Source: Venturia oleaginea
Taxonomy: Eukaryota; Ascomycota; Dothideomycetes; Venturiales; Venturiaceae
NCBI GenBank assembly: GCA_013176395.1
Contig: JABMLP010000003.1
Coordinates: forward strand, 496,001 to 560,000
Length of the DNA stretch: 64,000 nucleotides
Reading direction: 5' to 3'
Positions 7,668-57,378 of the stretch are shown here, one piece after another (the first letter of the stretch is position 1; the number at the start of each line of letters is the position of its first letter). Position numbers and translations under genes: made by a program. Under the pieces are notes generated by a model. The model made no database searches and was not told where the DNA came from. It was given only the letters and a program-made list of their open reading frames with translations.

Positions 7668-7674
7668 AAAAAAA
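7668..7674 (-). terminator. RNA polymerase III T-run terminator of tRNA-Ser
   Basis: On the minus strand seven consecutive T residues follow the discriminator base of the tRNA gene after six nucleotides. A run of four or more T on the sense strand is the usual Pol III stop signal; its position supports a transcription unit ending with the tRNA. Confidence 0.75.
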
Positions 7675-7691
7675 GGCAGTCGACACCTGAG

Positions 7692-7702
7692 TGATTCGAA
7701 CC
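7692..7702 (-). promoter_or_regulatory. Pol III B box spanning the intron 2 acceptor
   Basis: GGTTCGAATCA matches the B-box consensus GGTTCGANTCC except at the last base. Its first G is the last base of intron 2, so the genomic box is complete only because the intron ends in G. Confidence 0.65.
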
Positions 7703-7754
7703 TGACGAAACCATTAATATCAATGCACGGATTATTGGTTGCGGCTAGACTTAC
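7702..7754 (-). other. intron 2 of tRNA-Ser(GCU), 53 nt, GT-AG
   Basis: Starts with a perfect GTAAGT and ends TTTCGTCAG. TATTAAT, 11 nt before the terminal AG, is a weaker branch-site match. It interrupts the T stem between positions 52 and 53. Confidence 0.75.
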
Positions 7755-7785
7755 ACTCGCTCCCGAAGGAACGGGCTTAGCAGGC

Positions 7786-7837
7786 CTAGTCGAAGTCAGT
7801 TATGTAGTTGACGCAAGATTCACGCGTGTGTACTCAC
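7786..7837 (-). other. intron 1 of tRNA-Ser(GCU), 52 nt, GT-AG
   Basis: Starts GTGAGTAC, ends CTAG, and carries AACTGAC 10-15 nt before the acceptor, matching the fungal branch-site consensus CTRAC. It interrupts the 5' strand of the anticodon stem after position 29. No bulge-helix-bulge fold expected of endonuclease-type tRNA introns was seen. Confidence 0.75.
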
Positions 7838-7848
7838 CCGCGCGTTAA

Positions 7849-7859
7849 CCACTCCGCCA
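7849..7859 (-). promoter_or_regulatory. Pol III A box in the tRNA gene
   Basis: TGGCGGAGTGG, positions 8-18 of the tRNA, fits the A-box consensus TRGYNNARNNG. It lies in exon 1 and is not disturbed by the introns. Confidence 0.7.
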
Positions 7860-7866
7860 AAGTGCC

Positions 7867-46044: not shown

Positions 46045-47876
46045 ACGTGTTCCACCACCGAGCTGGTCAGTTTCTGCCAAGACGACCAACTCCCTCATTA
46101 ACACGATATGTCTCAACAACAAAATGCGCAATTATCTAACAGAGAAGGCAGAATTCAGCTTGCCCTTTCTGCCTATAACACCCACCAATTCCGAAGCCTC
46201 CGGCGCGCTGCTGAAGCGTTTGATGTACCTCCTTCAACATTGACTAGCCGATACAACGGAATCACGTATCGCCTAGATACTCGCAACGCCCAACACAAGC
46301 TCACTACGACTGAAGAGCAGACAATTGTCCAATACATCCTCGACCTCGATTCGCGAGGATTCGCGCCCCGGCTGTGTGAGGTGGCAGATATGGCGGATAA
46401 ACTACTAGGTGTACGCGGTGGAGAGCTAGTAGGGAAAAACTGGGCTGAGAGGTTTATAACGCGCTCAGATGAGCTCAAGATGGCCTTCAATCGAGCTAAG
46501 GATAGGCAGAGGATACTACAGGAAGATCCAGAGATTATTGGCGCGTGGTTCAAGCTCGTTGCAGACACTAAGGCAAAGTACGGCATCCACGACGAGGATA
46601 CGCACAACTTTGACGAGATTGGCTTCCAGATGGGCGTTATTGGGTCAATGAAGGTCGTCACAGCTTCTGAAAGACGTACATGGCCTAATTTGATCCAGCC
46701 AGGCGATCGCGAGTGGGTTACAGTTATCCAGAGCATCTGCGCCGCTGGGTATGCGACCCCGCCATTCATTATCTACAAAGGACGCGTTCACATCTCTGCG
46801 TGGTATGAGGAGGCAGATATACCACGGAATTGGAAGCTCTCGGTCTCTGAGAACGGCTGGACAAACAACGCGCTTGGTCTTGGGTGGTTGAAGCACTTTG
46901 ACGCGTATACAGAGGCGCGTCAAGTGGGGGGGTATAGGCTGCTCATCTTGGACGGCCATGAGAGCCATCTCAACCAGGATTTCAAGGACTACTGCCTCGA
47001 ACATAAGATCATAACGCTCTGTATGCCACCTCATTCATCGCATATCCTCCAGCCGCTTGATGTGGTCTGTTTCTCGCCGTTGAAGTGCAAGTACTCTCAA
47101 CGAGTTCGAGACTTGGCACGCCGACGCGTCTACCATATCAACAAAGAAGGCTTCCTCCCAGCCTTCAAAGACGCGTTTTTCGACGTGTTTACAAAAGAGA
47201 ACTGTCGAAAGGCTTTTGAGATGGTAGGGCTAGTCCCTATCAACGCGGAGGTGGTATTGGATCGCCTTGAAGTATGGCTACGTACCCCACCAGCACCCCC
47301 ACCGCAGGAGACGCCGTGGCAGTCGAAGACTCCAAGCAATACTCTTGAATTTGGATCCCAATCCAAGCTCGTAAGCGAGTCCTTTACTCGGTCACCAGTT
47401 ACTGCGCAGGCAGGCTTTTCCCAGCTTGTCAAGGGCGCTGAATTGATGCTACACCAAAACGCTCTACTTGTTGCGCGCAACCGCGAGCTTGAAGAGCAAT
47501 TGGCAGTAATGACAAAGCGAAAATGGCGCAAAAGGAAGTGGATCCAGCAAGGTGGTACTATAGAGTATGGGACTGTAGCAGCGCAGGTAGCTGCCGAGGC
47601 GTCTGTCGCGCCTCAGGGATCAAAGAAGGCTCGTGGTAGTGGTGGTCAAGAAATAGCCCGACCAACTCAACGGCGCTGTAGGAACTGCGGCGCAACTGGG
47701 CATAATGCGCGAACTTGTAAAAAAGATATCGAGATATCATCTGAATCAGATAGCAGCACGACGGACTTAGAATGTATTGTTAATAGCGATTAAATTGAAG
47801 AGTCGTAACATGAGTTGGTCGTGCCAAGCCTTTTTGACCATTTCGGTGGGTTGACCAGCTCGGTGGTGGAACACGT
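46045..47876 (+). mobile_element. intact pogo/Fot1-type DNA transposon
   Basis: 25-bp perfect terminal inverted repeats, ACGTGTTCCACCACCGAGCT with five further bases, at 46045-46069 and 47852-47876, each flanked by TA (46043-46044, 47877-47878), the target duplication of Tc1/mariner/pogo elements. The element is 1832 bp and carries one uninterrupted transposase gene. Confidence 0.95.
46108..47793 (+). CDS. pogo-family DDE transposase with C-terminal zinc knuckle
   Basis: 561 residues, no stop or shift. An N-terminal Psq-type helix-turn-helix (FRSLRRAAEAFDVPPSTLTSRYNG) is followed by a CENP-B-type DNA-binding helix set (VGKNWAERFITRSDELK) and the DDE_1 catalytic core with Asp in FDEIGFQMG, ILDGHESH and LQPLDVVCFSPLK, the usual D-D-D of Fot1/pogo. 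The C-terminus has a coiled coil and CRNCGATGHNARTC, a CCHC knuckle seen in some fungal pogo transposases. All catalytic residues are in place and both TIRs are perfect, so this copy is probably young and may still move. Confidence 0.95.
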   Translation: MSQQQNAQLSNREGRIQLALSAYNTHQFRSLRRAAEAFDVPPSTLTSRYNGITYRLDTRNAQHKLTTTEEQTIVQYILDLDSRGFAPRLCEVADMADKLLGVRGGELVGKNWAERFITRSDELKMAFNRAKDRQRILQEDPEIIGAWFKLVADTKAKYGIHDEDTHNFDEIGFQMGVIGSMKVVTASERRTWPNLIQPGDREWVTVIQSICAAGYATPPFIIYKGRVHISAWYEEADIPRNWKLSVSENGWTNNALGLGWLKHFDAYTEARQVGGYRLLILDGHESHLNQDFKDYCLEHKIITLCMPPHSSHILQPLDVVCFSPLKCKYSQRVRDLARRRVYHINKEGFLPAFKDAFFDVFTKENCRKAFEMVGLVPINAEVVLDRLEVWLRTPPAPPPQETPWQSKTPSNTLEFGSQSKLVSESFTRSPVTAQAGFSQLVKGAELMLHQNALLVARNRELEEQLAVMTKRKWRKRKWIQQGGTIEYGTVAAQVAAEASVAPQGSKKARGSGGQEIARPTQRRCRNCGATGHNARTCKKDIEISSESDSSTTDLECIVNSD

Positions 47877-53499: not shown

Positions 53500-56400
53500 A
53501 TACAACCCGTGCGACAACAAGAGGACATTTCAACGTGATTTCATATAACACAGGGAAGAGGAGAGAGACGCTACCTAGTCTACTTAACGACGAATCTATC
53601 AGAGATTTCGACGCGCTGCTAATACAAGAACCACACTGCTTCAAGACACAGACAGGACAGGTAATGGCGGCACCAGCAACAAACAACAAATTTATTCAGA
53701 TTTTCCCAACGTGCTCTAGAGACGACACATGGCCTATCCGATCGATGATCTGGGCCCGGAAAACGCTCGACTACAAACAGATCCCGATTGCGTCTCCCGA
53801 CATCACGGCAATCCTTATCAAAACTCAAGGCAAAGTCATCTTTACAGCTTCAGTGTACGTGCCAGCAGGAGAAGCACACCGAGAGCGGGATAAGACCGCA
53901 GTGACAGAACGGCTTCAGTTACTAGAAGATGCAATCAAAGATACAGCTCAAGAGCTTGGACACGAGCCAGAACTTCTCATCACCGGAGATTTCAACCGAC
54001 ACGACCAGCTCTGGGGAGGCGAGCAAGTAGCAGAAACAAGGCGACAGGATGAAGCAGACGCCATCGTTGAGTATATGGCGGTATATCAACTCTCTAATCT
54101 TGTCCCCAGGGGAGAGGCCACATTCTACGGAACGCAAGTAAGCAGTACCATCGACCTCTTCCTCACTTCACCGGCTCTCACCGACAGCTTGGTACGGTGT
54201 GGATTCCACGTCAACGAACACGGATCGGACCACCGGCCCATCAGTGCGACATTAGCTATGACGTGCGTGGAGGAGACCACAACACCCAGACGACTACAAA
54301 AATGCAGATTGGGAGCGCATCCGCCAGGAGGTAGAACACGCAAAGCAGCGGCAAGCAGTTGCCCCACCGGAAGAGAATGCAGACGAAAACGTGGACGATA
54401 TGCTGCAACGATTGATGGAAGTAGTAGTCCCTGTTATCGAGCAATACGTTCCTCTTGCAAAACCGTCGCCGTACCAAAAACCATGGTGGACACCATATCT
54501 GACCAACCTTCGCAAGGAATACACACACGTCAGAAGACAGCTATGCAGAGAAGTTAAGGCGAGCCGGTGGACGACCGAAACGAACGCTCTCACACACCAA
54601 ACACTGCAGAGGATCCGAACGGAAGCCAGAGAAGCTCAAAGCACGTACCATCGAGCAATCCGATCGGAAAGAAACACTCACTGGAAGGAATTTCTAGACG
54701 ACGCTGAAAATGTATGGAAGGCCGCTAAGTATCTTGACCCAGAGAGTACCTCCTCTTTTGCAAAGATTACAGAACTAGCGAGGCCAAACTCTGACGACAC
54801 GACCGAAAGTAAAGAAGAGATTGGATCTATTCTGCTGCAAGCCTTCTTTCCCCCGGCGGCTGAGGTGATCGAGCCAGAACCAGCAGCAGAGCAGCGAGCA
54901 ACACAACTCCCATCACCAGCACTAACAAAATACGAAATCGAAGAAGCGATCATGGGCGTGAAAGCACACAAAGCACCAGGCCTGGACGGTCTACCCGCGG
55001 TTGTATGGAGACAGCTCTGGCCAGTCCTCCAAGACGAGATAACGAGATTGTTTCAAGCGTCTATGACACAAGGCATCCTCCCAGCGCAGTGGAAATGCGC
55101 GCGAATCCTACCACTTCGAAAGCCAGCAAAAGACGACTATACACAGCCAAACGCGTATCGACCAATCTCGTTGCTAGCAACCCTAGGGAAAGCACTGGAG
55201 GCTGTGGTCGCTACCCGCATCTCCTACCTAGCTGAAGAACACGGCCTCCTACCAGAGAATCATTTTGGAGCTCGGAAGCAACGTAGCACAGAACAGGCAC
55301 TGCTGCTCCTCACCGACCGCATCAAACAGGCGCGAAGAAGGTGCCGAGTCCTTAGCCTGCTTAGTTTTGACGTCAAAGGAGCGTACAACGGGGTCAACAA
55401 AGAAGTACTCTTGGCCAGATTACAAAGACGACGTATTCCAGAGGAGCTTGTTCGTTGGATTGAGAACTTCTGCTCGGGCAGGAGAGCAAGCATTACAGTG
55501 AACGGGCAGAGCAGCGAGGAAGTAGATTTGCATTCCCCAGGGCTGCCTCAAGGCTCACCTCTATCCCCAATACTCTACCTCTTCTTCAACGCTGACCTGG
55601 TAGAGAGAAAGATCAGCCGGCACCAAGGCGCAATTGCGTACGTGGATGACTACTCTGTTTGGGTCACCGGGCCAAATGCTGAGGAAAATACTCGGGTGCT
55701 TCAAGAGACAGTGATACCAAAAGCGGAGCAGTGGGAACGTCGTAGTGGAGCTACATTTGAGCCCAAAAAGACAGCCTTCATCCACTTCACACCAAGCGCG
55801 GAAAGACTGTCAACGACGCCAATTCAAATTGGAGGCTGCTCGGTGGTGCCAGGCTCCTCCGTCAAGCTTCTAGGCATTATTCTCGACCAGAAATTGAAGT
55901 TCCACCTACAGGCTGCCAGAGCAGCTACAAAGGGACACGATGCGGCGATCCGGCTGAAGAGACTGAGTGGTCTTCGTACGAAGCAGGCACGGCAGCTGTT
56001 TGAAGCGACAGTGGCGTCAGTTGTCGACTACGCATCATCAGTCTGGGCAACAGCGTTGAACGCCAAAGATACACGCTTGCTTGAACGACACCAAAGATGG
56101 GGGGCACAAGCCATTGTTGGATGTTTCCGAACTACAGCGCTAGATATTGCGCAGTCGGAGGCATCGATCGGGACCTTCCAGCAACGACAGACAGGGAAAT
56201 GGATAGGCTTGTGGGTTAAGCTAAACACACTACCTAAGCGCCACCCATTGAGATCCAGTATAAAAGCAGTACATCAATCATTCAAGCTTCGCTCGTCACT
56301 TGGCCTGTTGGCAGACAGGTTTGCAGGAATTAATATGTCCCAGATTGAGACAGTCACACCATTTGCAAAAGCACCGTGGATCCAGGGGCCCAGCATGATT

Positions 56401-57378
56401 ATCGAAGAACGCGACGAAGCTGTAAAACCTACCACAACACAAGACAGAGACGAAATCCACTGCTACACCGACGGCTCAGGTAGAAATGGCTTGCTAGGGA
56501 CAGGTATGGTGTACATTCTACCAGACGAAAACAGGACTATACTCGAGCAGTACGCAACAACGGGATTGGCAGCAAACGGCAATGTATACGCGACAGAGCT
56601 GAAAGCAATCAGTACTGCTCTGAGCCAGCTGGCAGTATGGACAATGATCCCGGCAGAAGGAAAACTCACCATCTTCTCGGACAATCAGAGTGCGCTGAAG
56701 AGTATCCGCAAGCCGAGACAGCAGTCAGGCCAGCATCTCATCAAGGATATCTTGTCAGCTACGCAGCAATTACATCAAAAGGGTATTGCCGTGGTTCTTC
56801 GATGGATCCCGGCACACTCTGGCATCAAGGGCAACGAAGCGGCAGACAAAATGGCCAAAAGAAGTACCAAAGCAGGGAGCGCAGTCCCGTCAGAGATACG
56901 ACTACGCTCAGCACTGATTAGGCAAGCAAAAAAGAGCTGTCAGCCAAGCAATAAACCACTGCGAGGAGGGAGATTCACCAAATCTATCGATGCTGCTATC
57001 CCTGGAAAACACACGCGCACCATCTATAACCAGCTATCCAAAACAGAGGCCCAAACCCTAGCTCAATTACGGACGTCACATTGCCGACTGAACAAGTACC
57101 TGAACCGAATCGGAGCGGTGGAGTCGCCATTGTGCGAAGAATGCGGAGTCGTGGAAAGCGTGCAGCATTTCCTACTCGATTGCAAACGATGGAGCGAGCA
57201 ACGACGGCTCTTAAGAGAAGCGACCGAACCAAGGAGCGACGTCTCCTATTTAGTAGGAGGCCGCTCAACACTTACAAACAGAAGAGGAGAGATGATTGAT
57301 GGTCCAAAATGGACGCCAGATGTAGCAGCGGTGCGAGCGACAATTGCGTTCGTAGACGCTACAAAACGATTCAGCTGA
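53493..57378 (+). pseudogene. LINE ORF2 polyprotein with a frameshift
   Basis: The APE-type endonuclease comes first (VISYNTG, LLIQEPHC, LLITGDFNRHD, HGSDHRPI). Near 54285 the frame shifts (the second frame reads DYKNADWERIRQEV) and then stays open to 57378: reverse transcriptase (YRPISLLATLGK, SFDVKGAYNGV, GLPQGSPLSPILY, AYVDDYS), RNase H (CYTDGSGRNG, ATELKAI, FSDNQSALKSI, WIPAHSGIKGNEAAD) and a C-terminal C-x2-C-type unit (CEECGVVESVQHFLLDC). All catalytic residues are present. The single shift, unless programmed, inactivates this copy. Confidence 0.9.

What the first reader, a model, noticed from the sequence alone, without database searches (positions are those of the whole stretch)
7681..7866. 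A nuclear tRNA-Ser(GCU) gene carrying two spliceosome-type GT-AG introns
Seen directly: the minus strand has an A box, a B box, G73 and a T7 terminator, but no folding anticodon or T stem unless 52 nt (GTGAGT...CTGAC...CTAG) and 53 nt (GTAAGT...TCAG) are removed. After removal all four stems pair, U33 and anticodon GCU appear, and the variable arm closes with a UUCG loop. Known: nuclear tRNA introns normally sit at 37/38 and are cut by the tRNA endonuclease; these sit at 29/30 and 52/53 and match fungal spliceosomal introns in length, donor, acceptor and (intron 1) branch site. Inference: a Pol III transcript that needs the spliceosome, or a tRNA made by Pol II.
Basis: partly seen in the sequence, partly recalled or inferred. 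Interest (0 to 1): 0.95.

Follow-up and report, generated by a model that had tools for sequence, protein, structure and literature searches.

The report
tRNA genes interrupted by mRNA-type introns
In a scab-type fungus (Venturia), several tRNA genes are broken up by the same kind of short intron that normally sits in protein-coding genes, so these tRNAs would have to be spliced by the mRNA splicing machinery, which we found described for other small RNAs but not for tRNAs.

Summary
Window 7866-7681 (minus) is a tRNA-Ser(GCU) that ARAGORN calls only after inserts of 52 nt (7837-7786) and 53 nt (7754-7702) are removed. It is not a lone oddity. In this 46 Mb Venturia-like genome, 14 tRNA loci of seven isoacceptors carry 16 GT...AG inserts in T arm, D loop or anticodon stem; 15 of 16 are 49-60 nt, each with a branch-like motif 9-18 nt before the end. 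A further decayed locus has two inserts without GT. Two U6 genes carry such introns too, and three protein-gene introns look alike. Arguments for working genes: the window gene and its C15 paralogue have identical spliced sequences while intron 2 shows no similarity and intron 1 at best weak similarity; the only four differences from the intronless Ser-GCU copy are two compensatory T-stem changes pairing across intron 2; both Arg-UCU genes found are interrupted, and no intronless one was found. Best reading: Pol III tRNA precursors spliced by the spliceosome. Splicing is inferred; no RNA data were available. Some copies look decayed.

The parts
7838..7866 (-). Exon 1 of tRNA-Ser(GCU), mature nt 1-29 (acceptor 5' strand, D arm, first 3 nt of the anticodon stem)
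   Evidence: identical in the C15 paralogue
7849..7859 (-). A-box-like sequence TGGCGGAGTGG
   Evidence: read; the consensus is recalled
7786..7837 (-). Intron 1, 52 nt, position 29/30, GTGAGT...GACTAG, branch-like CTGAC at 7799-7795
7755..7785 (-). Exon 2, mature nt 30-60 (rest of anticodon arm with GCU, long variable arm with TTCG loop, T-stem 49-52)
7702..7754 (-). Intron 2, 53 nt, position 52/53 in the T stem, GTAAGT...CGTCAG; weak branch-like TTAAT at 7717-7713
7681..7701 (-). Exon 3, mature nt 61-81 counted along the 81-mer (G53, T loop, T-stem 3' strand, acceptor 3' strand, G73)
7693..7701 (-). B box GTTCGAATC, left intact because intron 2 ends just before G53
   Evidence: read; the consensus is recalled
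7668..7674 (-). T7 run, Pol III terminator-like, 6 nt after G73

Best explanation
These are working nuclear tRNA genes that acquired ordinary short GT-AG spliceosomal introns. The internal promoter (A box and B box) drives Pol III transcription. U2-type spliceosomes then remove the introns from the precursor, which allows the T arm and anticodon arm to fold; RNase P, RNase Z and (where a 37/38 intron is also present) the tRNA endonuclease complete maturation. Shown here: the genomic anatomy, its recurrence over seven tRNA isoacceptors and U6, identical spliced products with divergent intron bodies, and compensatory pairing across an intron. Inferred: transcription by Pol III, splicing by the spliceosome, order of processing. 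For Arg-UCU, needed for AGA codons, only interrupted genes were found, so at least that tRNA would depend on this splicing.
For: (1) Unspliced, 10 of 14 interrupted tRNA loci give no ARAGORN call; the other four are called with the insert counted into an anticodon intron or long variable region, two of them as the wrong tRNA (Pyl, Lys). Spliced, 14 of 14 give the expected identity. (2) 16 of 16 inserts in those loci are GT...AG; 15 of 16 are 49-60 nt (one 89); the nearest [CT]T[AG]A[CT] motif lies 9-18 nt before the intron end in all 16. Thirteen of the 14 loci were found without any splice-site motif at the insert. Protein-gene introns of the window are 48, 50 and 57 nt with CTAAT or CTAAC 9-13 nt from the end (CDC45 and ADH backed by Venturia proteins; SpoU by frame only). 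(3) The window gene and C15 share both positions (29/30, 52/53) and 81 of 81 mature nt; their introns score z=2.5 (first) and z=-0.3 (second) against shuffles, and their flanks are not alike. (4) The four differences between the window gene and intronless C12 are two compensatory T-stem changes, 49:65 (A-U/G-C) and 52:62 (A-U/U-A), which pair across intron 2. (5) T-stem pairs: 57 of 60 own against 454 of 660 with strands swapped between 12 genes. (6) Arg-UCU 2 of 2 and Gly-CCC 1 of 1 loci found are interrupted. (7) Gly-UCC and Ser-CGA exist both with and without the intron. (8) U6: 2 of 7 loci over cut-off carry GTAAGT...CTAAC...CAG introns, a known kind of Pol III gene with spliceosomal introns.
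Against: No RNA evidence. One intact intronless Ser-GCU (C12) and two uninterrupted Ser-AGA copies exist, so those interrupted copies could be dispensable. Some interrupted copies look decayed: C5 and C19 Ser-GCU and C27 Ser-AGA each pair at 4 of 5 T-stem positions, C19 has acceptor mismatches (by eye), C20 Arg-UCU has A33 instead of U33 (by eye). A Gly-UCC-like locus (C6:1470243, L102) has two inserts that do not begin with GT. The only Arg-UCU gene with U33 (C6) has its first T4+ run 79 nt downstream. Introns at 57/58 (4 loci) split the B box. Six of 16 tRNA introns lack a full GTRNGT donor.
Confidence: 0.85

Rival explanations
1. Interrupted copies are dead or silent tRNA relics; intronless copies supply the cell, and GT-AG ends are leftovers of an insertion process.
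For: C12 is an intact intronless Ser-GCU and C59 and C25 are uninterrupted Ser-AGA. C5, C19, C27 and L102 show decay.
Against: 81 of 81 identity of window and C15 mature sequences with divergent introns and flanks; compensatory T-stem changes across intron 2; no intronless Arg-UCU found although AGA is used (44 of 3451 codons in four window genes).
Confidence: 0.1
2. The inserts are removed by a tRNA-endonuclease-type reaction (bulge-helix-bulge), as for archaeal and red-algal D- and T-arm introns, and not by the spliceosome.
For: T-arm introns at 53/54 exist in the nuclear tRNA-Ile(UAU) of Cyanidioschyzon merolae (passages of PMC9602550).
Against: No BHB fit: totals of 1-4 of 8 pairs at 15 tRNA introns, against means of 2.1-4.2 with shuffled introns (no positive control was run). 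Donor, branch and AG match mRNA introns of the same genome.
Confidence: 0.04
3. Same introns, but the host transcripts are made by Pol II, and the tRNA is cut out of a longer spliced RNA.
For: 6 of 13 interrupted tRNA genes lack a T4 run within 25 nt; Arg-UCU C6 has none before +79; 57/58 introns split the B box in 4 loci.
Against: The window gene has A box, intact B box and T7 at +6. Lack of a near T4 run is not clearly more common than in uninterrupted tRNA genes (13 of 37). The longest T run is 3 or less in 15 of 16 tRNA introns, though this was not tested against a background. U6 is a known Pol III host of such introns.
Confidence: 0.15
4. The introns are copies of a mobile intron-making element (introner) that recently landed in tRNA genes.
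For: The same position 52/53 was hit in several isotypes; many inserts share nearly the same length.
Against: Same-site introns are not clearly alike: 27 pairs, z from -1.6 to 2.9; the higher values may come from shared branch motifs. Genome-wide copies were not searched.
Confidence: 0.08

Closest known systems
Spliceosomal introns of fungal U6 snRNA and U3 snoRNA genes
   Same: Small structured non-coding RNA genes made by Pol III, carrying short GT-AG introns with branch sites; paralogues with and without introns in one genome (passages of PMC5832005). U6 introns of this kind are present here too.
   Different: Host is tRNA, seven isoacceptors and five insertion positions. The 2017 paper states that U3 and U6 are so far the only small structured RNAs known to be often interrupted by an intron.
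Nuclear tRNA introns at 37/38
   Same: Interrupt tRNA genes; they coexist with the new introns in Gly-CCC, Gly-UCC, Ser-UGA and Ser-CGA C3.
   Different: Position, length, GT-AG ends, branch motif; no link to the anticodon loop.
Ectopic D- and T-arm tRNA introns of Cyanidioschyzon merolae
   Same: Introns in D and T arms, including 53/54 (passages of PMC9602550).
   Different: No BHB-like pairing here; GT-AG and branch motifs instead. That the algal introns use BHB is recalled.
Spliceosomal introns in rDNA of ascomycetes (lichen fungi)
   Same: Spliceosomal introns in non-mRNA genes of ascomycetes (recalled, no paper seen).
   Different: Pol I transcripts; not tRNA.

Membership tests
U2-type spliceosomal intron | GT...AG ends with extended donor | tested here: met
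   GT...AG in 16 of 16 inserts of 14 tRNA loci, full GTRNGT donor in 10 of 16; in the decayed locus L102, 0 of 2 inserts begin with GT.
U2-type spliceosomal intron | Branch site 6-36 nt before AG and short fungal intron length | tested here: met
   Nearest branch-like motif 9-18 nt from the end in 16 of 16; 15 of 16 are 49-60 nt. The range 6-36 nt for fungi is from PMC5832005. Motifs in window intron 2 and C15 intron 1 are weak (TTAAT or TTGAT). The motif is loose and was not tested against random sequence.
U2-type spliceosomal intron | Removed by the spliceosome in vivo | not testable with these tools
   no RNA data
Functional nuclear tRNA-Ser(GCU) gene | Cloverleaf with GCU, long variable arm, G73, A and B box, terminator | tested here: met
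   after in-silico removal of both introns
Functional nuclear tRNA-Ser(GCU) gene | Expressed and charged | not testable with these tools
   no RNA data
Canonical nuclear tRNA intron | Position 37/38 | tested here: not met
   positions 29/30 and 52/53
BHB (archaeal/red-algal) tRNA intron | Bulge-helix-bulge pairing around both junctions | tested here: not met
   15 tRNA introns; no positive control was run
Group I or II self-splicing intron | Catalytic core | tested here: not met
   52 and 53 nt are too short for one (recalled); no Rfam match in the window at gathering score
Introner element | Many near-identical copies | tested here: inconclusive
   same-site introns not clearly alike; genome-wide copies not searched

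The most novel reading that the evidence does not exclude
In this fungal lineage several nuclear tRNAs, among them the only tRNA found for AGA codons, have become dependent on the spliceosome. Introns were gained or kept at five sites of the tRNA, and precursors such as Gly-CCC need both the spliceosome and the tRNA endonuclease, so translation is directly coupled to splicing capacity.
Probability: 0.7. Interest if true: 0.95.

Novelty: new variant of a known kind. Interest (0 to 1): 0.92.

Why it matters
tRNAs are taken to be spliced by a dedicated endonuclease and ligase, and spliceosomal introns in small Pol III RNAs were reported as frequent only in U6 and U3. If spliced as inferred, these genes show that the spliceosome can process a Pol III tRNA precursor with an internal exon of 31 nt and restore a tRNA fold. 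They give a natural system to study intron gain in genes without a reading frame. They also warn annotators: standard tRNA finders miss or misname such genes, so isoacceptors that seem missing in fungal genomes may be hidden ones.

Tried and rejected
Tried with little or no gain. The 18S rRNA family search gave no answer and was not repeated, so the genus rests on proteins: Mit1 97% over the 501 residues searched and 91% over 1536 aa to Venturia nashicola, CDC45 85% to V. inaequalis. Three donor-plus-acceptor patterns gave 12, 12 and 8 rows against 12, 21 and 18 for the reversed-pattern controls, so no excess overall; they recovered the window gene, C15, C27, both Arg-UCU genes and Ser-UGA, and one new interrupted gene, Ser-CGA C3. 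All rows off contigs C38 and C58 that were not already known genes were fetched and read by eye; L105 stays unclear, the others show no tRNA. The acceptor pattern gave 48 rows against 43 in its control; of 15 regions fetched for it, Gly-UCC (C13, C23:204k) and Ser-CGA (C1) are tRNA genes, L082 and L088 are tRNA-like (35.2 and 30.8 bits) and unresolved; the rest of its rows were not all looked at. A hexamer-based scan for protein-gene introns gave only three trusted introns. The survey of tRNA genes is incomplete: one search scored 63 of 1697 first-look candidates and many isoacceptors were never seen, so no fraction of all tRNA genes is claimed. Papers: ten searches of open-access PMC only; no listed title or abstract start reported spliceosomal introns in nuclear tRNA genes; passages were seen of PMC9602550, PMC12730881, PMC11782384 and PMC5832005. 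Subscription papers may hold such a report.

Considered and rejected: BHB introns, self-splicing introns (size), relics only.

Full report
WHAT IS THERE. On the minus strand at 7866-7681 the window holds a tRNA-Ser(GCU) gene in three pieces. Removing 52 nt (7837-7786) and 53 nt (7754-7702) gives an 81-mer that ARAGORN calls tRNA-Ser(gct), with D stem, anticodon stem, long variable arm with a TTCG loop, 5-bp T stem, G73 and an acceptor stem with two G-U pairs. The raw window gives no tRNA in ARAGORN and no Rfam match at gathering score. A T7 run begins 6 nt after G73.

ORGANISM. The window lies in contig C23 of an unnamed 46.08 Mb, 61-contig genome. A Mit1-like protein is 97% identical to Venturia nashicola over the searched 501 residues and 91% over 1536 aa; CDC45 is 85% identical to V. 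inaequalis. I take it as a Venturia species or close kin; the species is not known. Contig C38 is inferred to be mitochondrial from its tRNA set alone.

NOT ALONE. A search with the spliced 81-mer found, besides the window, five Ser-GCU loci: C12 intact without introns (95%), C15 with both introns, C17 with the 52/53 intron only, C5 and C19 with a 57/58 intron. Other searches added Ser-AGA C20 and C13, Ser-AGA C27 and Ser-UGA C2, Arg-UCU C6 and C20, Gly-CCC C10, Gly-UCC C23:204k with a D-loop intron, and Ser-CGA C3 with a 57/58 intron. By isoacceptor, among loci found: Ser-GCU 5 of 6 interrupted, Ser-AGA 3 of 5, Ser-UGA 1 of 1, Ser-CGA 1 of 2, Arg-UCU 2 of 2, Gly-CCC 1 of 1, Gly-UCC 2 of 3 (one of these two, L102, is decayed and its inserts lack GT). 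Apart from Ser-CGA C3, none of these loci was first found by a splice-site motif at its insert. U6: of 7 loci over cut-off, 4 are full length, 2 (C12:1178091, C36:59841) have one intron each at different sites, and 1 (C2:1122156) is partial.

ANATOMY. The 14 tRNA loci (L102 not counted) hold 16 introns: 49-60 nt except one of 89 nt; all GT...AG; full GTRNGT donor in 10 of 16; nearest branch-like motif 9-18 nt before the end. Positions: 29/30, 52/53, 53/54, 57/58 and the D loop. The median of 17 introns (15 tRNA, 2 U6) is 53 nt. Three introns of protein genes in the window are 48, 50 and 57 nt with donors GTAAGT, GTATGG, GTAAGC and CTAAT or CTAAC 9-13 nt before the end. With all equivalent placements allowed, the chance of GT...AG at all 17 is about 1e-34; this assumes equal base frequencies and independence, and leaves out L102 and Ser-CGA C3.

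WHY I THINK THE GENES WORK. First, the window and C15 genes have the same mature sequence, 81 of 81, and the same two intron positions, yet their second introns are no more alike than shuffled ones (z -0.3), their first introns only weakly so (z 2.5), and flanks of 120 nt show no similarity. Second, the intronless C12 differs from the spliced window gene at four places, and these are two double changes in the T stem, 49:65 (A-U to G-C) and 52:62 (A-U to U-A), each joining an exon 2 base to an exon 3 base. Third, T-stem pairing holds in 57 of 60 pairs for 12 genes with T-arm introns, against 454 of 660 (69%) when strands are swapped between genes (Gly-UCC left out, its T arm is whole; Ser-CGA C3 found later); related genes share stems, so the swapped value is high. 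Fourth, a search with the 72-nt Arg-UCU found only two loci, both interrupted at 53/54, and AGA makes up 44 of 3451 codons in four window genes; the C20 copy has A33, leaving C6 as the only normal-looking gene. Gly-CCC has one locus, interrupted.

RESULTS AGAINST. C5, C19 and C27 carry T-stem mismatches, L102 has lost splice sites. The C6 Arg-UCU gene has its first T4+ run only at +79. A T4 run within 25 nt is present in 7 of 13 interrupted and 24 of 37 uninterrupted tRNA genes, and in Ser-CGA C3 at +7, so this neither proves nor excludes Pol III. Introns at 57/58 (C5, C19, C2, C3) split the B box. Intron 1 of C15 contains TTTT. Nothing here shows RNA.

MECHANISM. Most likely Pol III transcribes the gene from A and B boxes; intron 2 ends just before G53, so the B box stays whole in the window gene. 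The spliceosome recognises each short intron as in mRNA and joins pieces whose mature parts are 29, 31 and 21 nt; end trimming and modification follow. In Gly-CCC, Gly-UCC, Ser-UGA and Ser-CGA C3 an anticodon-loop intron is present as well, so two splicing systems would act on one precursor. The precedent is fungal U6, whose precursor splicing is impaired in fission-yeast splicing mutants (only a title in the reference list of PMC5832005 was seen).

NOVELTY. PMC5832005 (passages) states in 2017 that U3 and U6 are so far the only small structured RNAs known to be often interrupted by an intron. Ten full-text searches of open-access PMC listed no report for nuclear tRNAs. D- and T-arm introns of a red alga are known (PMC9602550, passages), but the junctions here show no BHB fit (no positive control). 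I file this as spliceosomal introns in a new class of host gene: a new variant of a known kind.

Noticed in passing
L093 (C12:1178051-1178300) and L094 (C36:59801-60056): Two U6 genes each with one GTAAGT...CTAAC...CAG intron (52 and 58 nt) at different places, beside four full-length U6 genes in the same genome.
   Followed up: partly
L102 (C6:1470100-1470480): A decayed Gly-UCC-like locus with inserts in D loop and T arm; the D-loop insert begins TTAAGT and ends ATAG.
   Followed up: partly
L099 (C20:146880-147260): The second Arg-UCU gene has A at position 33 of the anticodon loop, where U is nearly universal.
   Followed up: no
window 46102-47793 (+): Open frame with DDE_1 and HTH_psq domains, transposase-like.
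   Followed up: no
window 54262-57378 (+): Open frame with reverse transcriptase and RNase H domains, retroelement-like.
   Followed up: no
L021 and L022 (C58, 18.9 kb contig): Two opposite copies of the same organelle-like tRNA-Arg(tcg), and repeated matches on both strands, on a short contig.
   Followed up: no
L065 (C19:646019-646636) and L066 (C60:820514-821187): Two tRNA-family matches of 35.7 bits with the same sequence on two contigs, one about 240 nt from a contig end; not called by ARAGORN.
   Followed up: no
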